This document shows positions 223 to 25,083 of a stretch of 64,000 nt of DNA, piece by piece. The notes below the pieces were generated by a model, which had not been told where the DNA came from, did no database searches, and saw only the letters and a program-made list of their open reading frames with translations. Position numbers and translations under genes: made by a program. Position 1 is the stretch's first letter. Each line of letters opens with the position of its first letter. This DNA comes from Tausonia pullulans (lineage: Eukaryota > Basidiomycota > Tremellomycetes > Cystofilobasidiales > Mrakiaceae), in NCBI GenBank assembly GCA_951802195.1, contig OX637625.1, positions 186,001 through 250,000 of the forward strand, read 5' to 3'.

Positions 223-2977
223 ATGTCGGGCGGCTTCAACCCCAACGCTCCCTCGTTCAACTTCGTTCCCGGCCAGCCGTTCGTGCCTCGAACTCAGCAA
301 CAACAGCAGCAACAGCAGCAGCAGGGGCAGCCGGGCCAGCAAGGCAGCCACGGCGGCTACCACGGCCAGCAGCAGGGTTACTACGGCGGCCAACAGCAGC
401 CTTTCAACCCTTACAGTGCCTCGGGCTACGGCGGACCCCAGCCCGGGTACGGTGGACCTCCGGGAGGCTACCAGCAGCCAGGTGTTTACAACCCGTACGC
501 CGCCCAGCAGCCGGGAGGCTTCCAGCCCCCCCAGCCCCGCTATTCGTCGCCGTCGACCCAGGTTGGTGGGCCCACCCAGGCCGAGCAACTCGCTGCTCTC
601 CCTCCAAAGGTTCTTTCCCTCGGTGGCGCCAAGCCCGCGCCCTCGAACCAGCCATTCGTTCGGACGGAGGCCAAGGAGGCGCCCAAGCCCGCTCCCTCGC
701 TTTCCCTCGGAGGCGGCAAACCCATCATCAAGCCCTCGACGAGCGGCATGATTTCGAACTCTAACAACACCACCAAGCCCTCGAGCGGCATGATCTCCTC
801 GTCCAACAACTCCAAGCCTGCTTCCATTGCGCCATCGGTCCCCTCCAATGGCCCCCCGTCCTCTGCCTCGTCCTCGACTGATGCTGCCGCCTCGACGCTT
901 GCTGCGGCTGCTGCTGCTGGTACTGCTGTTGTTCCTGCTGCAGCTTCTGGTTCAGTCGAGCCTGAGAAGGCCGATAAGAAGGAGAAGAAGGAGAAGCTTG
1001 CTCCCGTCGCCGCCGCCGCCGCTTCGTCCAACTACAACTTCAGCACTTCCAAAGCTAAGATGGACTCCGACGGTGTCGCGGCCGAGGCTGAGAAGCTGCT
1101 CACCGAAGACTCGCTCCAGACGCTCTATGGTGGTAAGCAGGTGGACGCCGCCGGTACGTTTCATTCAGCCGCGGATCCAGCTCCGGCTCTTCTCGCTGAC
1201 GACGTTCTTCCGGCTTCTCTTTGGATGGCTTCTCACAGCCAAGACCCACCTTAGTGAGCCTACGACATTTGTTTGATTATCAGATAAAGACGCATCTGAC
1301 AGGATGCCTTTGGCGCTCTCTAGACGTCGTCTTCATCGGCCACGTTGATGCTGGAAAGTCCACTATGGGAGGTCAGCTACTTTACCTCACCGGTATGGTC
1401 GACAAGCGTACTCTCGAGAAGTTTGAGAAAGAGGCCAAGGAGGCCGGTCGTGAGAGCTGGTACCTTTCCTGGGCGCTGGACTCAACCCCTCAAGAGCGCG
1501 CCAAGGTCCGTCCTTTCGGGTTGACGTCTTCTCTGGCTGTGTACGTATGCTGACCCGTTGCCGCCTTCGGCTTGCCTTGGCTCGTTCAGGGGAAAACCGT
1601 CGAGGTCGGACGTGCCTACTTCGAGACCGAGACCCGACGTTACACGATGCTCGACGCCCCAGGCCATAAGACCTATGTTCCGAGCATGATTAGCGGAGCT
1701 GCCCAGGCTGACGTTGCCCTTCTCGTACGTTGAGCGTCTTCCTTCTTTCACTCCCTTTTCAAATGTTTTGTTCTGATCTCTTGGAGCGGTGACATCAGGT
1801 CATCTCAGCGCGCAAGGGTGAATTCGAGGCCGGTTTTGACAAGGGTGGCCAGACCCGCGAGCACGCTCAGCTCGTCAAGACGGCTGGTGTCACCAAGCTC
1901 ATCGTTGTCGTCAACAAGATGGACGACCCGACTGTCGCTTGGTCCGAGGAGCGGTTCAAGACGATCCAGAAGGAGCTCGGCGGGTTCCTCAAGAAGGGAC
2001 TCTTCCTCCCCAAGGATGTCGTCTTTATCCCCGTCTCGGCCTTCACTGGTGCCAACATCAAAGAGCAGGTTTCTAAGGACATTTGTCCCTGGAACACCTC
2101 GCCCTCGCTCCTTCAGTACCTCGACAGCATGCCCGCCCCCGACCGCAACGTCAATGGGCCTTTCATCCTCCCCATCTCGGAGAAGTACAACGATCTTGGC
2201 ACCATGGTTGTCGGAAAGATCGAGTCTGGCCGCATCTACCGCGATGACACGCTTCTGCTGATGCCGAACAAGGTGCGCTGGCAAATGGCCAGAAGATTCA
2301 TGTAAAGGACTGAGATCCAGGACTGATCGCGCTGTTTCCTCCTAGACCTCCGTCAAGGTTTCCAACATCTACGACGAAGTCAACGAGGAGCTCGAGCACG
2401 CCTATTCTGGCGACAACATCCGCATCCGTCTCTCGGGCGTCACCGATGCCGACGTCACGCCAGGATACGTCCTCACCTCGCCCAGCCGTCCGATCCACAC
2501 GACGACCCGGTTCCAGGCGCAGCTGGCGATTCTCGAGTCCAAGTCGATCATCTGCGCCGGCTACAACGCCGTCATGCATATCCACACGGTTACCGAGGAG
2601 GTCACCCTCGTTTCGCTCCTCCACTACCTTGAAGCTAAGACGGGTCGCAAGTCGAAGAAGCCCCCCCAGTTTGCCAAGACCGGCCAGCAGATCATTGCCC
2701 TCATTGAGACAACTGCCCCAGTCTGCATGGAGAAGTTTGCCGACTTCCCGCAGCTCGGACGGTTCACGCTTCGCGACGAGGGCAAGACCATAGCGATCGG
2801 CAAGGCGCGTTTCTCGCGTTGTCCAGCTTACGTCTCGCTCAAGAGCTCACTAAAATCCGTCTTTCGTTTATGGTTTCTTAGGTCACCAAGATCATCACTC
2901 CCAGGGAGACTGCTGCGGCCGACGCTGAGGCGCTTCCCGACGTCGGAGGTCTGGCCATCGACGGTGCCACTGCCTAA
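223..2977 (+). CDS. SUP35: Translation termination GTPase eRF3 (Sup35)
   Basis: This is eukaryotic release factor 3, the GTPase that works with eRF1 at stop codons. Six exons read 223-1153, 1324-1505, 1590-1724, 1799-2272, 2346-2804 and 2882-2977, giving 758 aa. The N-terminus is prion-like: a polyglutamine run followed by G/Y/Q-rich repeats (GGYHGQQQGYYGG). An S/T/A-rich middle region and a K/E-rich segment follow, as in yeast Sup35. The GTPase domain shows G1 GHVDAGKS, G3 DAPGH, G4 NKMD and an SAFTG G5 region. The C-terminal part carries the elongation-factor-like beta barrels (FTLRDEGKTIAIGK). The intron between exons 5 and 6 begins with GC rather than GT; the eRF3 C-terminus is only readable with it removed. 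The identification is very secure; exon edges were set by eye and all phases agree. Confidence 0.96.
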
Positions 2978-3283: not shown

Positions 3284-6200
3284 ATGTCGGCGGCTCCGTT
3301 GTCCGACGAGTTCGATGACGATCTTGATGACGCGACGCTCGCCGCGCTTGATGAGATCGAGCAAGGCGTCGTAGCCGGTCCCTCGTCATTGGTCCTTGAG
3401 CGTGGTGCGCCCTTCAAGGCCGATCCGAGTAAGAGCTTTGTGAACGAGCTGCGAGCAGAGCCCAGTAAGCAGCAAGCAGCATGCCTTCTTACCCCTCCCT
3501 TCTCGTCCCGCCATCCTCCACCCGTGTCCACTCAACCCGCTGATCCTTCGCGGTCAGCACCTGTCAATCCAGGGTCAGATGACATCTACGGTGACGATGA
3601 CGACTTCCTCATGTCGGCCGCGAACCTAGAGGAAATTCAAGCCCTCGAGTTCACCCACTTCCAACGCGCTCCGGTCGCGTTGAAAGCTGGCACCTACGCG
3701 CGTGCTGGGACATTGCCCTCCACCTCGTTATCTCCTTCCTCCTCTTCCTCCTCCTCTCTCTCTCGCTTCCGACCTACACCTGGAGCCAGAGGACCTGTGA
3801 TCTCTTCCACCCTTCACCCGCCAGCACTGCGCATGTCCGGTCTCCGCCAGACGCATCTCCTCGGCGGGATACTTGACGAGACCGAGTTCGACGAGGCGCC
3901 CAACGGCTCGCAGAGTGGCATGCACAGCAAAGAGGGTAAAAAGTGGGACCGCACTCACTGGGCTAAGAGTGGTTTTCTGAGGCGAAAGGAGAAGGCCAAG
4001 GCACAGGGAGGCTGTGACGATGGCGAGGACGATGGCCCCGAAGAAGGGGACGACGGAAACGATGGGGGCTTCGAGCAATTCCCAGCGCCGTTCGTCAATC
4101 GTGAGTGCCGTTCATATGGAAATTGTCTTGGAGTAGGCAGAGCATAGTATACTGAATAACTCGCACGATGTTCGCTATCCAGCGTTACAGTAAGCACGGC
4201 GACGGCCATCAGACTCTGGGAAGCATGACTGACCGACGCTCTTCTACGCCTGTCTTCTTCCTTCGCCTCGCCAGGCTTGTGAGCATTCATTTTCACTTTT
4301 CAGGGCATGTGAACATCCTGCTGACCTCGCCTCTCTTGTAGCTTCCCCCTCTGAAGCATAAGTACGACCCCGTGGCCGTCAAGGTGTGCCCTTCCCAATC
4401 ACTTTTCAGACACCTCTAATGCTCCCGCCCTCACACCACACCACGTTCTCGCTCTCTCATGCAGACATGGATCTATCCAACCAACCTTCCATTTAGGGAC
4501 TACCAGTACAATATCATTCGCCGCTGCCTCTACCAGAACACGCTTGTCTGCCTTCCGACCGGTCTTGGCAAGACGTTCATTGCTGGTGTGCTCATGCTCA
4601 ACTGTACGCTTTCGACGGCTGTTCAGGTCTTTCGGGCGTCCATCGCGAGCTAATATCTGTCCCTTATGGCTCTCACCAGACACGCGATGGTTCCCGACGG
4701 GGAAGATTTTCTTCATCGCCCCAACTAAGCCGCTTGTCAATCAGCAGGCCGAGGCGTTTCCTCAGACGTGCGGCTTCATCCGCAGCCAAATCACCGTTCT
4801 CACAGGTGATGTCGTTGCCTCTCAACGGTCGAGGCTGGTAAGTCCCTTGCTTGCCTCTTCCTACCTCGCCCGAACAAGCAGGCGCCTAACCGGCGCGTAC
4901 AACCCTACCTACCATTGCTCTTTAGTACGAATCGAAGACCGTCTTTTTCATGACGGCGCAGACAATGCAAAACGACTTGTCCAAGGGCGTCCTCAACGCC
5001 CAGGATGTCATCATGCTGGTCATCGGTGAGTGGCCTTCGGTTGTCTCATGCAATACTCAGCTGGCTGTCCTGAACGAGTACGCATTTCAATGCCTGTCTT
5101 CTAGATGAGGCCCATCGCGCGACAGGCGAGCATTCGTACAACCAGGTCGTCCGATCCCTCCAGGCGCGGAACCACCACTTTCGCATTCTCGCTCTCACCG
5201 CCACGCCTTGCTCGCAGCCCGAGAAGGTCCAGGAGCTCGTCGATGCGATTCACATCTCCCATGTCGAGTTGAGAACGGATGATTCCTTTGATCTCCGGCC
5301 TTATGTCTTCAAGAAGGTCTATCCTTTCAGAATGGCCAGCTTCCTGAGAGGGGGAAGGCTGACTCTTTGTCTTGGCTCGACAGAAAATTGAGCAAATCTC
5401 CATCCCGCTCTCGCGTGACATCATCAAGATAAAGGACATGCTCACCAAGATTATGCAGGTGCGTCGTTTCCGATATGAATTGGCTATAGCGTCCCTTGCT
5501 CACTCGCTCCTCCTCCCTTTAGCCCATGATGACAGAACTTCAGAAGGCCGGCGTGATCTACGAGCGGGCCGAGCCGGCAACCCTTAGCCCATTCATCTGC
5601 ATGCAGGCATCGAAGAAGAAGGAGAACAGTCGCTTTAGATGGACCCTCAGCCAGCTGGGGGTCTACTCGCGGGCGATGGTGAATCTCGTAAGTCAACCCC
5701 TTGCTGACCAAAGCATTCAAGTCTCCCTTAGTCTTTCTCGCCGTGACACTCAAGTCTCAGACTAATCCATACCCACCTCCCCCTTTCTTAGCTTCTCTAC
5801 AGCCTCGGCATGTGTGAGCACTCCCTCGAGTCGGCCATCTCGAAAAACGCCAAGGCGGAGAGCGCAAAGAATTCCTCGTCTAAGGCCAAGGCCATCATGA
5901 ACGAGATCGCGGTTATGAAGGCGCGCGGTGGGTACGTTGGTCATGCCAAGATGGACCGGGTCAAGGGTCTTCTTCTTGAGCATTTCTCACCAAAGGAGGC
6001 CGGCAACGGCCGTGACGATATTGATTCGGGCAACACGAGAGTCATGGTGTTCTGCAGCTTTCGCGCGTGTTTAACAGAACTTGTGGTAGGATGAATATCC
6101 CTTCTCCAGGCGCAGTGGTGGTCTCTCCAGACGTTATTCACGCGACGCATGCCTTTTCTCCACCTCAGTCCTATCTCAATCAGGAGCAGCCTCTTCTTCG

Positions 6201-11045: not shown

Positions 11046-11601
11046 ATGTCCCAGCAGAACGGCCAGATGAACACCGGCGCCCAGCAAAGCTCCTACCAGA
11101 CGGGCTCCCACCACGCTGTCGTCGCGACGCAAAACTATCTCTGCGCTGGTGCGTCTTCCGTCGTCGTTGTTGCCCATCCGCAACTCCGGCCGCCATTTCT
11201 GACTGCTTGACTCTTGCTCTCAGACTGCGCCGCGGAGAACCCGATCAAGATGGGAGAGCCCATCCGGTGTCGCGAGTGCGGACACCGCGTCATGTACAAG
11301 CCTCGAACCAAGCGGAGTGCGTTCCGCCCTTGGACCCAACAACTGCTGCTTGCAGACATTGATGTGGCCCTGCTTTCCCCCTCCCTCCCCCCCCCCCCCC
11401 CCCCCCCTCTCCTGCCCGGGCGTCTTCTCCCTTTGTAGTGGTACGGTCTCTCCTTTGCTTGGACATCCACGTTCGCCTGCGGGCGCCGTGGCAATCCTCT
11501 TGCTGACGGAGCTGTCTCTTCCTTTGCCTTCCATATCCGTCCTCCTGCTCGATTTCCTGCCTATGTCTTCGACCAAGCAGGTCCAATTCGAGGCCCGGTG
11601 A
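11046..11601 (+). CDS. RPB12: RNA polymerases I/II/III shared subunit Rpb12 (RPABC4)
   Basis: This is the small zinc-binding subunit shared by all three nuclear RNA polymerases (RPC10 in budding yeast naming). Exon 1 is 11046-11148 and exon 2 is 11224-11316; they give [12 protein letters not shown] then [17 protein letters not shown], so the CxxC...CxxC zinc ribbon is complete. The last exon, 11581-11601, encodes VQFEAR and the stop. The family ends in RTKR-(M/L)-VQFEAR, and a single Met codon is missing between the two exons. The A at 11316 plus a 2-nt exon TG at 11439-11440, flanked by TAG and GTACGG, restores it exactly. The product would be 72 aa, close to the 70 aa of yeast. The gene is certain; the 2-nt exon is an inference from phase and conservation. 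Confidence 0.93.
11387..11407. repeat. 21-nt poly-C tract in an RPB12 intron
   Basis: An uninterrupted run of C lies in the second intron of RPB12, about 30 nt before the proposed acceptor at 11438. It extends the pyrimidine-rich tract. Its length is likely to vary between strains and between sequencing reads. Confidence 0.9.
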
Positions 11602-12123
11602 TTGCGTTTCCCCCGCAGGACCTCCATCCAAGCTGGCGACCGGACGAGGTGGAGGAGAGGACGCGTCGGGAGCGCGCGGCAACGGATGCCCCGTTTGTCT
11701 CTCTGCCTTCCCTTCCTCTCCTCCTTCTTTGGCCTGACAGTCCGCTCTTCTCTTCCCCTACATGAACAAGTCCAGGGGCAGATGAATAGTTGCCAGGACT
11801 AGCTAGAGCTGTACTTGTACTCACACCCTTTCCTTCACAAAAAGATGACTTTACGATGATCAGTTACCCTCGAGGAAGCATTCGCGCAAGCGGGATCGCT
11901 TGCCTTCTTGGTCAGAATTCAACTTAAATCACTTCCCCTCTGGCCGCTGAGACATCAAAGATGGACCTAGGACGCGACTATTTGCGGAATTATCTCTGTA
12001 TCTGCACTACAGGGCAGTCCGACACGATAACGTGGTGGCTTGCCTCCTCTCTCAATGCATCTGTACCCTCCGAATCAGACCATTTTTGTTCATTCATTAC
12101 TTTGTTCCCATCGTTGCTCTCCT
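11602..12123. other. Intergenic, convergent between RPB12 and the Zn cluster gene
   Basis: This holds the 3' ends of two converging genes. The first 200 nt are C/T-rich; the rest is less GC-rich. I see no conserved open frame and no RNA gene. Confidence 0.5.
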
Positions 12124-19916: not shown

Positions 19917-22900
19917 ATGTCGTCTCAAAATCCTACGCGCTCGAGCTCCGGTGATGAGCAGGTACCCTCGGCCGCCTCCTCCATTTCTTCCAGCTCAGCC
20001 TTCAGCCAGGCCACGACCCCGCCCTTCAACCGTCGTCTCACTAACTCTCCCGGGCCGATCTCGAAGGAGCCTCCCATCGTCCTCGGTATCTGCGCCCTCG
20101 ACATTAAGGCCCGGTCCAAGGCCATGCGCGAGATCCTCACCCGGATTGTCGAGATTGAGGGCTCCGGGATCGACATCAAGATCTTTGGCGACAAAGTCAT
20201 TCTCGACGAGGGTCAGTCGCGCGGTGTCATAAGACTCCCCTTTTCCCTACGCGACGCGTTTTCGCAGGCCATTCTGCATCATTCATGCGCTCCCCAATCG
20301 CTCGTGTAGAACTTTCCAGCATGTGTCGATCGGTGGGGATTGTTCTCAGCCCTAGGAGCTGCCACTGCTGCTGCTCCTGTTCTCTGCCCCGGCCTTCACG
20401 CGTCGCGCACGTTCTGGGCCCTTACTGACAGCATTCGCTCTCTCCTCTTCGCTCGCGACGACTCTAGAGATACAGCACTGGCCGCACTCGAACGTGCTGA
20501 TCTCCTTCTTCTCAACCGACTTCCCGCTCGATAAGGCCATCGCCTACACCCACCTCCCGACGCTCCAGCCGCCGCCCATTGTCATCAACGACCTCCCGCT
20601 CCAGTCCGTCCTCTGGGACCGCCGGCTTGTGCTCGCCATCCTCGACCATATCAATGTCCCCACGCCTCGCCGAGTCGAGGTCAGCCGCGATGACGGACCC
20701 TGGATTGGCCCTGAGGTTCGGGAGAAGATGCAGGGGCTCGGCCTTGATCTCGATTCGCTGGGCTGGAAGACGCCGTCGCAGAAGAAAGGAGGCGTCGTCC
20801 GCGGTCGAGACGTCAAGCTGCGAGAGGACGGAAACGCCATTATTGTCGATGGTGTCCTAATGGAGAAGCCCTTTGTCGAGAAGGTTCGTCGTCAGAGTCC
20901 TCACTTGGTGCTCTGAAGGCCAGGTGGGGTTTAGTTAGACACACGCGCACGTTCGTTCTGACAGCTCGTCCATCCCCGCTTGACGTAGCCCGTCAACGGC
21001 GAGGACCACAATGTCTACATTTACTACCGTGGAGGAGGAGGTCGCCGCCTATTCCGCAAGGTGCACTCTATCTTCTTGACTCGCAAAGCCAACAGTCGGA
21101 CAAGAGCTGATTGTCATGTGCGCATCCCTTCAGGTTGGCAATAAATCCTCGGAGCACGATCCAGATCTGCACGCGCCTCGGACTGAGGGCAGCTTCATCT
21201 ATGAGGAATTCATCAACGTCGAGAATGGTGAGAACACTGTCATTTGCCGTTTGATGGAGCTTGTTACGGGTTCTGATCGGCGCTCTGCTTGATTCGTCGC
21301 CAGCTGAGGATATTAAGATCTACACCGTTGGCCCGTCCTTCTCGCATGCCGAAACCCGCAAGTCGCCCGTCGTCGACGGCCTAGTCCGCCGCAACACGGA
21401 TGGCAAGGAGATCCGTTTCATTACTAAGCTCTCGGACGACGAGAAAAGTTATGCCCAGCGGATCTGCGAGGCCTTTGGCCAGATGGTTTGCGGCTTTGAC
21501 CTCCTTCGCTGCGAGGGAGGCGAGAGGAGTCTTGTCATTGACGTCAACGGATGGAGCTTCGTCAAGGGCAACCAGGTGAAGAAGAAGCTCCCCTTGAGGG
21601 ATGATAGAGGCACAGGCTGACAATAGCGACGATCCGCCAGGCTTACTACGGTTAGCTCACAGGACTAGATTGCCCTCGTTTGGCACTGACTGATAGTACT
21701 ATCCGCCTACAGACAAGGCCGCCGAGATCCTCGCAGGAGTCTGCGAGGGGGCCCGAATCCGTCGCAGGTCGCTCGAGACGGCTGCCGCCGCTTTGCCGGT
21801 CAACCCCAGGAGTGGAATCTCTGCCAAGACGCCCATCGAGTCTTCGCCATCTATGCCTACGGCGTCATCGACGCTCAAGGCTAGCGTCACAGTCTTTCGC
21901 CACTCTGACCGGTGAGTCGTTCCCTTCCTTGAATGTAACCAAGCCCTTTTGACTACTGCTGAGCCCGCTTTAGAACTCCAAAAATGAAAACTAAGTATGT
22001 GCTGAAGACCTTTGTTTCGAAGAGCTTATGTGCGTTTGTTAACCATATTGTTTTCAGGTTTACCTTTACCCAGGGCGAGCCTGTTGGTCTTCGTTTTCCC
22101 TTTGCTCCGCCAGCAGCAGCGGGTCCGTAATTAACTTTCCTGCCCGTTATCTCAGTGGGCCGCTCCCTTTGTCTCACTCCTCCGCGGTCACCGTGAAGAG
22201 ATTGTTCTGCGAGAATCGAAGCAGCTCGATCTCATCCTCGAGGCCGCTGGTATGGCCATCGATATTGGCTGCCCCGAAGACTTCATGGAGAAGCTTCGCC
22301 GTCTGCAGGATGTCCTCCAGCGCAAGAAGGACCTTCCCGGCACCAAGGCCCAGCTCAAGCCGACATTCCCTAAGGACAAGTCGAGCAAGAAAGAGAAGAA
22401 GAGGGAGGACCCGATGGACGACGATGATGGTACCACGACCGAGACAGACGACCGCATTCGCAAGTGGATGGCCCTCGGCGAGGCTTCAAGTCCAATGGAC
22501 GCCGTCAAGGAGGAGGGCGCCGCTACCGCTGGGATCGACACTTTGAGTCGGCCCAAGTCCACCGAGGACTCAGCTCGGACCAAGTCGGCCAAGATTTTCC
22601 CTGCTCCCGAGGGGCTTGAGAAGGTTCAACTGGGTGAGGTCCGCTCCGGCCTTAGTTTTTTTTTGTTCCAGTTTTGACCCTTCTACCACCCAACCTCTCG
22701 CTCTAGTCGTCAAATGGGGAGGCGAGGTCTGTCTGCCTCTTTGTATACTAAAGGTCGAGGTCGAGATCGCTTATCTGCTCGTATGCCTTCCTCTTCTCAG
22801 TCGACCCATGCTTCGCGGTACCAGTCGAAGGATCTTGGAGAGAATATGAAAAAAGACATCACCATCATGAACTCGTCCATTCTCAAGAATGTCAAGGTTT

Positions 22901-25083
22901 GTGTACCGCCGTGGTTGCCGACGGGCGTCACACTCAATCTAACACTCGTATCTGGATGTTCAGATCTACACCTCGTCCGAACGTCGTGTCATCAACACGG
23001 CCGACATTTTTGCCCGCGCGCTCCTTGACAAGGATAGCAGTTCGGGCTCATCCTCATCGACGAGCCTTGCGTCCGGCAAAGCCCCACTCGTCGACCATCT
23101 CATTCAGCGTCGGGACCTTCTCGACGACTCGAACGCGGCCAAGAGCCTCATGGACGGTGCATTCTCCGAGTCGAGCTCTGTTCAATCGTGGCATCTGGCT
23201 GAAGATCTGACATATTGTTGTCACCAGGCGTCAAGAAGAAGCTCAAGATCCTGCTTCGGCCTGGAGAGAGCGAGCGTCGGCCGGGACTCTACTGGCCAAA
23301 GGAGCTCAAGAAGGAGCCTGTTCAGGTCGTTCGAGTGCGTGGCTCGCTCACAGCTCTTCTCTCAAAGCCGTTATCGCTGACGGAAAGCTGTCGCTTCGAT
23401 AGGAGGTCGTGGAGATGATGACTGACATGCGGGAGATCCTGCTCGCCAATTTCAGCAACGGCAACGTCGACAAGATTTCCTCGCGATGGTGAGCAGCAGA
23501 GCTATCACCATCTGAATGGCATCTTCGAGCTGACGCATCCCTCGTTTGCTGCCCAAAGGTGCTCCGGCGACAGCCCAAGCCTCTTCAAGGAGCGCTGGGA
23601 GAAACTCTTCGAGGACTGGGTCGTAAGTCGCGACTTCTTCCGGGCCGCCTCTTCTAATGGAGCCGCGGTACTGATCTTGATGTATGGACCCAAAAACAGG
23701 GTGTCAAGCAGGAGAAGGTCAGTCCTCGTTGGCGGAGTTGGATTCCCGTTGCTTCCGCTGACTTGTTCGCCCTCCGGCACCAGTTTGACCCCTCCCGGGT
23801 GAGCATCAAGCGTCATCTCCATCGTCGAGATGGATGGGACTAACGCTTGATTTTGTTCTCTCCCAGGTTTCTGAGCTGTACGATTCTCTCAAAGTGAGGT
23901 TCACTCTACATGACGCGTTCTGCGCTCGCACAAGCTGATGAACCCTTCCGTGCTTCAGTACGACTCGCTTCACAACCGCGTCTTTCTCTTCGCCATCTTC
24001 GATCCGAACGGCGGCAAAGACCCCTCGGCGCCCAAGGACCGCCGGCTTCACGAGCTCGTCGACCGGGCCAAGGTGCGTTGCACATGTTGAATATCATGCG
24101 ACGAAGCTGACACGGGTCCTTACAGCTCCTCTTCGACCTCGTCGCTCCTCAAGAATACGGAGTATGTCCAAAATTTCCAACCTCTGTTCTGCTACCTGAG
24201 CTTATGCGTATTTCTCCATATAGATTGAGCCCGAGGAAAAGGAGGAGATCGGCCTTCTCACGTCGTTGCCCTTGCTTCGCAAGGTCGTTGAAGTCAGTGC
24301 TTCAACCCTTCATTTGGGCTCCCGTCAGGATGACGCTCACCCTTATTTGATTTATCTTCAGGATCTCGAGCATGCTCAGGCGAGCGACGAGTCTCATGCG
24401 TCATTCTACTTCACTAAGGAGTCACAGTGAGTGCTGTCAACGTCCACGACTCCGTCACGGTAGACCGATGGCTGACCCGCTCCCCTCCCGGTCTAGTATC
24501 TACACTTTTGTCAACCTCGTCCTAGCGTCCGGAATCCCGATGGACAAGAAAAAGAAGAGCATCGAGCTTGATTACGGTCTGTCCTCGCGCTCGAGCGTCT
24601 CAGCTGGGCGACCGCTGACCCTTTGCATACTCATTAGCCTCCCACATCACCTTCGAGCTCTACGAGCGTTCGACGCCCGGCCAATCCAAGAAAGAGTTTT
24701 CTCTTGGCATCGCGATCTCCGAAGGTGCTCACTCGCCTCAGATCCTTGACTCGTCGGTTGATGCCCGGCACTCACTCAATGTTCAACCGAGGCGCAAGCT
24801 CTGCTCGTATGTCATAGTTGCACGATGTCTTCGCTCAAGCCGGCTGACACAGTTGTTTTCCCGCCTCAGCCACATTCCCTACGACACGGCGATCACCGCG
24901 CTTAAGGCGTTCGAGAACAAGGCCAAGCAGCAGGACCTCGTCTTCTCGACGACTCCCCTCGAGGGAGAGTCCGTCTACTTCAAAGCCGATATCCAGGACG
25001 AGACGGAGATCCCTTTGAGCTTCTCCCGGTACAACGAGCCTCCCAGCAGCGTCAACAGCGACAAGGCTGGCGAAGTCTGGTAA
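19917..25083 (+). CDS. VIP1: Inositol hexakisphosphate/diphosphoinositol kinase Vip1 (PPIP5K)
   Basis: This is the bifunctional inositol pyrophosphate kinase/phosphatase (Asp1 in fission yeast), which makes 1-PP-InsP5 and InsP8 in the cytosol. The start [12 protein letters not shown] at 19917 opens a Ser-rich leader. The ATP-grasp kinase half then reads [94 protein letters not shown] and [14 protein letters not shown]. The histidine-acid-phosphatase-like half begins at [14 protein letters not shown] and continues through [14 protein letters not shown]-type sequence, [12 protein letters not shown] and FTKESHIYTFVNL. At least fifteen introns occur. The RHSDRTPK motif is split by introns around a 21-nt exon at 21974-21994. 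The stop TAA is at 25081-25083. Length and motif order fit the family well. Confidence 0.95.

What the first reader, a model, noticed from the sequence alone, without database searches (positions are those of the whole stretch)
11316..11601. Probable 2-nucleotide exon in RPB12
Exons 2 and 4 of RPB12 end in ...RTKR + A and begin with VQFEAR. The family requires one residue between them, Met or Leu. No acceptor/donor pair I could find gives this directly: exon 2 ends in phase 1 and the last exon starts in phase 0. A TG at 11439-11440, preceded by CTTTGTAG and followed by GTACGG, restores ATG (Met) and an exact RTKRMVQFEAR. Each flanking intron (122 and 140 bp) has normal ends. An exon this short is close to the physical minimum and rare in any eukaryote.
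Basis: partly seen in the sequence, partly recalled or inferred. Interest (0 to 1): 0.75.

Follow-up and report, generated by a model that had tools for sequence, protein, structure and literature searches.

The report
Two-letter exon in RNA polymerase gene
In this intron-rich fungal genome, the only copy found of the gene for RNA polymerase subunit RPB12 reaches its family's usual ending, among the splicing patterns tested, solely through an exon two bases long, which is likely spliced into the mRNA and would be among the shortest exons known.

Summary
In a splice model self-trained on 260 kb of this genome (560 introns) the GC donor scores below all 560 donors, and that rival is 6.5 nats worse than the two-base exon. 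A TG exon with sites as good occurs about 0.001 times per 262 nt. An unspliced relative (P0121) permits, at peptide level, CAG|TG|GTCNGT in the same intron. The genome falls nearest Phaffia and Mrakia (Cystofilobasidiales), fungi with very many introns; 12 of 498 predicted internal exons are 10 nt or shorter, and three of 7, 10 and 13 nt encode residues that align to solved structures. I judge the two-base exon likely (0.84), a new member of a known kind: 1-nt exons are confirmed in plants and Fusarium. No transcript could be read, and splice signals alone would favour skipping it.

The parts
11046..11148 (+). RPB12 exon 1 (MSQQNGQ...NYLCA + G)
   Evidence: Sequence and frame; same exon in the self-trained gene model
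11149..11223 (+). Intron 1, 75 nt, CTG|GTGCGT ... CTCTCAG|ACT
   Evidence: Donor 86.8th and acceptor 73.9th percentile of 560 introns
11224..11316 (+). RPB12 exon 2, zinc ribbon ...[16 protein letters not shown] + A (phase 1)
   Evidence: PF03604 match, the only one found in the genome; whole predicted protein
11317..11438 (+). Intron 2, 122 nt, GGA|GTGCGT ... CTTTGTAG
   Evidence: Donor 47.7th, acceptor 31.8th percentile
11357..11363 (+). Candidate branch site of intron 2, CATTGAT (A at 11362), 77 nt from the exon; no A and no other AG between it and the acceptor
   Evidence: Branch score 3.63, between the 1st (3.08) and 5th (4.05) percentile; A-free stretch
11387..11407 (+). Run of 21 C in the pyrimidine tract of intron 2
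11439..11440 (+). Inferred two-base exon TG, completing A|TG = Met
11441..11580 (+). Intron 3, 140 nt, GTG|GTACGG ... CCAAGCAG
   Evidence: Donor 7.7th percentile (14.1st once intron 2 is gone: ATG|GTACGG), acceptor 29.8th
11501..11507 (+). Candidate branch site of intron 3, TGCTGAC (A at 11506), 75 nt from the exon
   Evidence: Score 6.83, above the 75th percentile (6.5) of found branch sites
11581..11601 (+). RPB12 last exon, VQFEAR and stop
   Evidence: Sequence; same kind of C-terminus in 139 of 143 homologues listed
11319..11320 (+). Rival GC donor (AGT|GCGTTC); would give RTKRSVQFEAR with one 262-nt intron
   Evidence: Score -5.5, below all 560 trained donors, which are all GT; context below all 11 predicted GC donors
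11439..11470 (+). Rival 32-nt exon from the same acceptor; would insert 10 residues ([10 protein letters not shown]) before VQFEAR
   Evidence: Donor CAC|GTTCGC score 3.1

Best explanation
The only RPB12 gene found in this fungus contains TG at 11439-11440 between an ordinary acceptor and a weak GT donor, and this two-base pair is likely spliced as a complete exon, giving the family's usual ending RTKRMVQFEAR. The likely route is sequential splicing by intron definition: intron 2 (11317-11438) would be removed first, which places A in front of TG and turns the next donor into ATG|GTACGG, a better site; intron 3 (11441-11580) would follow. The order is inferred; U1 at one site and the acceptor factors at the other could hardly sit on two bases together. 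Origin (inferred): an old intron splits the Met codon as A|TG, and a later intron gain two bases downstream isolated the TG, in a fungal order known for very many introns.
For: Frame and residues fit exactly, and of the enumerated joins only this one gives RTKRMVQFEAR. Chance of a TG exon with sites as good is about 0.001 per 262 nt. The two introns have ordinary lengths (10.2% of 560 introns are 100-160 nt) while one intron of 262-264 nt would be rare (2.3% are 250 nt or more). Model score -1.7 for the two introns against -8.3 for the GC-AG intron. One copy was found and its last exon is intact. Met in 137 of the 139 listed homologues with a complete end. In P0121, a relative read on from exon 2 into the intron, the peptide permits CAG|TG|GTCNGT 98 nt after the donor and does not continue as TGGTCCAATTC; 0.7% of 5000 control peptides reach the same probability for AGTGGT, 0.14% with the +5 G. 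Phaffia rhodozyma is annotated RTKRMVTR-stop, as if read on from TG into a following intron. Microexons are common here: 12 of 498 predicted internal exons are 10 nt or less, 66 of 498 are 30 nt or less; those in a RecQ helicase (7 nt), a GTP cyclohydrolase I (13 nt) and a VIP1-like kinase (10 nt) encode residues that align to solved relatives.
Against: No transcript was seen. The annotated Mrakia frigida protein P0001 reads RTKRSVQFEAR, the residue the GC-AG rival predicts. The donor TG|GTACGG is weak (7.7th percentile), the intron 2 branch candidate is weak, and both branch candidates lie 75-77 nt from their acceptors, where the median is 24 nt, although 17 of 76 introns of 100 nt or more have 60 nt or more (only branch sites scoring over 4 were counted, 449 introns). 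Splice signals alone, ignoring the protein, prefer skipping TG: the frame-breaking single intron scores +3.8 against -1.7. The self-trained gene finder did not choose the TG exon, even when exons of 1 nt were allowed. P0121 and Phaffia are read from proteins, not DNA; counted without probabilities, 24% of control peptides permit AGTGGT somewhere, 17% with +5 G and 5% with +5 G and +6 T.
Confidence: 0.84

Rival explanations
1. One GC-AG intron (11319-11580) is removed and the protein ends RTKRSVQFEAR, with Ser in place of Met.
For: It needs no tiny exon; Mrakia frigida P0001 is annotated with exactly this Ser; GC-AG introns occur here, 11 of 571 predicted.
Against: The GC donor scores -5.5, below all 560 trained donors, which are GT by construction; leaving the C itself aside, its context (-2.13) is below all 11 predicted GC donors, whose lowest is 1.73; it competes with a good GT donor two bases upstream; the intron would be unusually long. 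Among 139 listed homologues with a complete end only Mrakia has Ser. P0120 and P0121 read S-E there, so their DNA cannot have GC after the Ser codon. The Mrakia Ser could come from a gene caller, or from an aligner that laid TG over GT (inference).
Confidence: 0.08
2. The exon starting at 11439 is longer (32 nt, to 11470) and the protein carries ten extra residues before VQFEAR.
For: The donor CAC|GTTCGC scores 3.1, slightly above the 2.8 of TG|GTACGG, from the same acceptor.
Against: All 139 listed homologues with a complete end have exactly one residue between the RTKR position and the six-residue end; an insertion would split the most conserved stretch of a tiny core subunit.
Confidence: 0.04
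3. The assembly is wrong: two bases (TG) are missing just before 11581, and the real gene has one GT-AG intron ending in ag|TGGTCC.
For: An A|TG intron may be the older arrangement: the Pholiota model RTKRSAYL looks read on at the same A|GT. The single-intron signals score well.
Against: It needs a two-base deletion outside any homopolymer in exactly this place, and leaves the good AG|TG|GT site (0.001 per 262 nt) as coincidence. Reads could not be checked.
Confidence: 0.02
4. TG is mostly skipped, and the frame-shifted 61-residue tail ([13 protein letters not shown]... to a stop at 11765) is a real alternative C-terminus or a way to lower expression.
For: Splice signals alone favour the single intron 11317-11580; the shifted frame is open to 11765.
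Against: It would remove the conserved VQFEAR end from the only RPB12 copy found; none of the 143 homologues listed ends that way.
Confidence: 0.02

Closest known systems
1-nt exon of Arabidopsis APC11 (PMC4674806, passages read)
   Same: An ultra-short internal exon needed to keep the frame, between an AG and a GT inside a presumed single intron; the authors suggest intron definition with removal of one intron after the other.
   Different: One base, in a plant, proven by cDNA and reporter constructs; here two bases, in a basidiomycete, without RNA.
1-nt exon of Fusarium CYP621A P450 genes (PMC12940212, passages and Discussion read)
   Same: A fungal gene whose flanking exons disagree in phase inside a conserved motif and which a tiny AG-N-GT exon repairs; gene models are said to be wrong there.
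   Different: One base, an ascomycete P450, with the same candidate exon in 24 genes and read support in two species; stated there to be the first in a fungal gene. Here two bases in a core RNA polymerase subunit.
Conserved 1-nt microexons of plant APC11 and VPS55 (PMC8831610, passages read)
   Same: Conserved across species and missed by reference annotations.
   Different: Plant genes with RNA-seq and RT-PCR proof; '2-nt' and '2 nt' do not occur in its main text.
Annotated 2-bp exon in the sago palm genome (PMC8760474, two passages read)
   Same: An exon of two bases, reported as the shortest in a genome annotation.
   Different: An uncharacterised plant gene, with no test of the exon in the passages seen; the same table lists a 5-bp intron.
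Microexons in P450 genes of the basidiomycete Phanerochaete chrysosporium (PMC1184071, passages read)
   Same: Widespread tiny exons in a basidiomycete.
   Different: Shortest exon 6 bp, in one gene superfamily.
High intron density of Cystofilobasidiales (Phaffia, Mrakia) (PMC5103461, passages read)
   Same: The window's genes are closest to Phaffia and Mrakia; about 9 introns per predicted gene here against 7.4-8.2 there.
   Different: The passages shown speak of intron numbers, not of tiny exons.

Membership tests
RPB12 / RPABC4 (PF03604) | Zinc-ribbon domain over the family cut-off | tested here: met
   64.7 bits against a cut-off of 24; exon 2 alone 55.7 bits, the only match found in the genome
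RPB12 / RPABC4 (PF03604) | C-terminus RTKR-like, one residue, VQFEAR-like | tested here: met
   Met only with an inferred join: RTKRMVQFEAR by the TG exon, or with Ser or Thr by the GC-AG join or the CT exon; family tally
Ultra-short (1-3 nt) spliced exon | AG directly before and GT directly after, with both flanking introns of usable length | tested here: met
   tag|TG|GTACGG; 122 and 140 nt; site percentiles 47.7/31.8 and 7.7/29.8
Ultra-short (1-3 nt) spliced exon | Needed to restore frame and a conserved residue | tested here: met
   Only enumerated join giving RTKRMVQFEAR; Met in 137 of 139 listed homologues with a complete end
Ultra-short (1-3 nt) spliced exon | Present in the mature mRNA | not testable with these tools
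   No RNA reads or cDNA held
Ultra-short (1-3 nt) spliced exon | Conserved in related species | tested here: inconclusive
   P0121 permits CAG|TG|GTCNGT and Phaffia reads RTKRM-VTR, but Mrakia is annotated with Ser and no relative's DNA could be read
GC-AG intron | GC donor with otherwise strong donor context | tested here: not met
   Context score -2.13 against 1.73 to 6.15 for the 11 predicted GC donors
Stepwise (recursive-type) splicing | Removal of the first intron leaves a usable donor at the join | tested here: inconclusive
   Donor rises from 2.76 (7.7th percentile) to 3.31 (14.1st); intermediates cannot be seen here

The most novel reading that the evidence does not exclude
A two-base exon in a core subunit shared by RNA polymerases I, II and III is an inherited feature of Cystofilobasidiales, born when an intron was gained two bases from an ancient A|TG intron; every cell of these fungi splices it stepwise, and standard annotation gets the gene wrong in Phaffia and Mrakia alike.
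Probability: 0.55. Interest if true: 0.7.

Novelty: new member of a known kind. Interest (0 to 1): 0.57.

Why it matters
If true, a housekeeping gene that every cell needs depends on constant recognition of a two-base exon, so the lower size limit of exons is not confined to plants or to rarely expressed P450 genes. It gives a natural substrate for asking how a spliceosome handles two introns two bases apart, in a fungal group with extreme intron density and, by this report, many microexons. It also warns that standard gene models in these genomes can be wrong exactly in conserved motifs.

Tried and rejected
Relatives' DNA: scans for RPB12 in viral contigs (15 pattern matches, none confirmed) and prokaryote genome contigs (184, none confirmed) gave nothing.

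Origin by duplication: the end of intron 3 resembles the end of exon 2 (TCG-ACCAAGC against TCGAACCAAGC) close to the junction, but 409 of 5000 shuffles and 60 of 239 control introns align as well, so I make no claim. Intron 3 has no second copy found in the genome, so a repeated intron-like element is not indicated.

Gene-model training: a first seed filter separated signals only modestly (154 of 817 GTRNGT sites; the other five donor patterns tried ran from 82 of 1203 to 125 of 904) and was dropped. The first full training run collapsed into one giant gene because site and length scores were not normalised; I corrected the priors and the second run settled at 86 genes, 62 of them good enough for training, with 560 introns. 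All percentiles rest on that second run; its introns are predictions, not cDNA-proven. The branch distances were cut at 60 nt; one search repeated them without the cut. The six other AGNNGT sites that pass the score thresholds were listed, not followed.

Other one-residue joins (Thr from CT at 11512-11513) and longer exons were enumerated and set aside on scores or on the protein. Rfam and tRNA scans of the window found nothing.

The homologue tally has a bias: the first query contained Met at the position in question. The second also contained Ser variants. Each listing shows the best 120 only (of 158 and 624 hits); together 143 proteins. An earlier tally by another pattern (133 Met, 5 Ser, 1 Ile in 139 matched, 4 unmatched) counted read-on models and the first copy of the fused P0122 as Ser; one search replaced it by complete ends.

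Full report
WHAT IS THERE. RPB12 lies on the + strand: exon 1 11046-11148, exon 2 11224-11316 (ending ...RTKR plus A), last exon 11581-11601 (VQFEAR and stop). The zinc ribbon is the only PF03604 match found in the 23.9-Mb genome, and the gene region has one match, itself. Exon 2 ends in phase 1 and the last exon starts in phase 0, so two bases are missing for the one residue that the family places between RTKR and VQFEAR.

THE FAMILY. Two searches listed 143 homologues (the best 120 of 158 and of 624). Of these, 139 have a complete end of one residue plus a VQFEAR-like six: Met 137, Ile 1 (Tremella P0126), Ser 1 (Mrakia frigida P0001). The other four are Phaffia P0002 (RTKRMVTR), Pholiota P0117 (RTKRSAYL) and two relatives that read on into the intron, P0120 and P0121 (RTKRSES...). 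Solved relatives show Leu and Val at the position (that these are mammal and plant is recalled). So the position is hydrophobic nearly throughout; 'Met or Leu' is slightly too strict.

Donor GTGCGT after A also makes a GC two bases on: AGT|GCGTTC. A GC-AG intron from 11319 to 11580 gives RTKRSVQFEAR in one step. This had to be tested, the more so as Mrakia is annotated that way.

A SPLICE MODEL FROM THIS GENOME. I fetched C6:100001-360000 except the window, which I held, and trained a gene model without outside labels. After one failed run it settled at 62 usable genes of 86, 560 introns, 9.0 introns per gene, donor consensus GTGAGT (+5 G in 91%), branch site GCTGAC, acceptor CAG 74% and TAG 17%, median intron 72 nt. 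Against it: donor 11317 is at the 47.7th percentile, acceptor 11438 at 31.8, donor 11441 at 7.7, acceptor 11580 at 29.8, while the GC donor (-5.5, with a 1% prior for C) is below all 560, which are GT by construction. Allowing GC donors gave 11 of 571 introns (two rows alike), with context scores 1.73 to 6.15; the RPB12 GC context is -2.13. Summed over site, branch, length and content terms, the two introns score -1.7 and the GC-AG intron -8.3. Lengths agree: 10.2% of introns are 100-160 nt, 2.3% are 250 nt or more.

CHANCE. AGTGGT occurs 82 times on both strands of 260 kb; only 2, this one included, have both sites at least as good, or 0.001 per 262 nt; for any AGNNGT it is 7 of 1892, or 0.0035 per 262 nt. 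In the gap itself only two AGNNGT exist, and the other is poor. In the enumeration of joins (GT or GC donors at 11285-11344, at most one internal exon under 40 nt, introns of about 40 nt or more, last acceptor at 11580), TG alone gives RTKRMVQFEAR.

RESULTS AGAINST. The protein decides; splice signals alone do not. A single intron 11317-11580 that breaks the frame scores +3.8, above the two-intron path; it would replace VQFEAR by a 61-residue tail. The gene finder itself took an acceptor at 11618 with another foreign tail, and when exons of 1 nt were allowed its shortest internal exon in 260 kb was 4 nt. A 32-nt exon from the same acceptor has a donor of 3.1, slightly better than 2.8, but inserts ten residues into a stretch of fixed length. 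Both branch candidates lie 75-77 nt from their acceptors, and that of intron 2 is weak; there a run of 21 C stands between, with no other A or AG. Over 449 introns with a branch site scoring above 4, the median distance is 24 nt; of the 76 of these that are 100 nt or longer, 17 have 60 nt or more. The acceptor at 11580, with its 75 nt, is needed by every reading that keeps VQFEAR.

RELATIVES. The best RPB12 matches are Mrakia and Phaffia. A GTP cyclohydrolase I from the same contig has Phaffia rhodozyma as its best match (64% over 99%), and a partial Mrakia frigida protein matches at 89% over 48%. I therefore place the genome in or near Cystofilobasidiales, reported to have the highest intron numbers among the fungi compared (PMC5103461, passages). 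Phaffia's annotated RPB12 ends RTKRMVTR, which fits reading on from ATG into an intron that starts GTNACN; such a donor would lack the usual +5 G, so this is weak. P0121 reads from exon 2 into the intron (RTKRSESLEE...GPQWSVC...). Its peptide permits CAG|TG|GTCNGT at intron length 98 with probability 0.387 under plain base composition, and two poorer placements. As a yes-or-no test this is not rare: 24% of 6000 noncoding control peptides permit AGTGGT, 17% with +5 G, 5% with +5 G and +6 T. With the probability taken into account it is: 0.7% of 5000 reach it for AGTGGT, 0.14% with +5 G, none with +5 G and +6 T. After TG the peptide does not fit TGGTCCAATTC, so this is not simply the last exon. 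P0120 and P0121 both have Glu after the Ser codon, which rules out a GC donor there. Mrakia's Ser may be true, or may come from a gene caller or aligner that put the two exon bases on the GT of the donor; I could not tell.

MICROEXONS HERE. Of 498 predicted internal exons, 12 are 10 nt or less, 37 are 18 nt or less and 66 are 30 nt or less; 32 of 62 genes have at least one of 30 nt or less. Three were tested: a RecQ helicase (7 nt, KDQ), a GTP cyclohydrolase I (13 nt, PFTGV) and a VIP1-like kinase (10 nt, AYYD, window 21641-21650); in each the residues align without a gap to a solved relative. A two-base exon is thus the far end of a range that this genome seems to use routinely.

HOW IT LIKELY WORKS (inferred). 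Exon definition across two bases is implausible; intron definition with removal of one intron after the other is what the authors of the Arabidopsis case suggest (PMC4674806, passages). Removing intron 2 first turns GTG|GTACGG into ATG|GTACGG and lifts the donor from 2.76 to 3.31. The Pholiota model that looks read on at A|GT hints at an old A|TG intron; gain of a second intron two bases downstream would isolate TG.

KNOWN OR NEW. Exons of 1 nt are proven in Arabidopsis APC11, plant VPS55 and Fusarium CYP621A (passages and one section). Searches for two-base exons led to one annotated 2-bp exon, in an uncharacterised sago palm gene, with no test of it in the passages seen (PMC8760474), and to one false lead (PMC7725694). 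Other papers in those listings were not opened except as cited, and subscription journals are mostly missing. Microexons are known in basidiomycetes: Phanerochaete P450 genes, shortest exon 6 bp (PMC1184071, passages). The one mention in the Cryptococcus paper that I checked is a mapper setting (PMC3990503); of the other papers only PMC1184071 was opened. Microexon with Cystofilobasidiales gave 0 papers; micro-exon with basidiomycetes gave two, the Fusarium and a Trichoderma paper. I file it as a new member of a known kind.

Noticed in passing
window 21641-21650: Predicted 10-nt exon in a VIP1-like inositol pyrophosphate kinase gene (19917-25083, 25 exons); its residues AYYD align to a solved relative.
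   Followed up: yes
window 23700-23717 and 23784-23798: Two neighbouring predicted exons of 18 and 15 nt in the same kinase gene (GVKQEK, FDPSR); they fit the family from memory only.
   Followed up: no
window 1239-1253: Predicted 15-nt exon just before the first GTPase motif (KTHLN-VVFIGHVDAGKS) of an eRF3-like gene; gene name and motif recalled, not tested.
   Followed up: no
window 4183-4189 and 4275-4278: Predicted exons of 7 and 4 nt in a row, upstream of a helicase-like domain (recalled as Mph1/FANCM-like); unverified. The model also seems to fuse this gene with the eRF3-like gene.
   Followed up: partly
G000:C6, window-relative 84554-84560 and 129604-129616: Outside the window: 7-nt exon in a RecQ helicase and 13-nt exon in GTP cyclohydrolase I, both supported by alignment to solved structures.
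   Followed up: yes
window 11387-11407: Run of 21 C in the pyrimidine tract of RPB12 intron 2; its length may vary between strains and may affect splicing.
   Followed up: no
window 11569-11580: The end of intron 3 (TCGACCAAGCAG) resembles the end of exon 2 (TCGAACCAAGCGG) right at the junction; not significant against controls.
   Followed up: yes
RPB12 and GTP cyclohydrolase I, about 117 kb apart on C6: Their Phaffia rhodozyma best matches P0002 and P0144 are both listed with a contig of 452644 bases, which suggests kept linkage.
   Followed up: no
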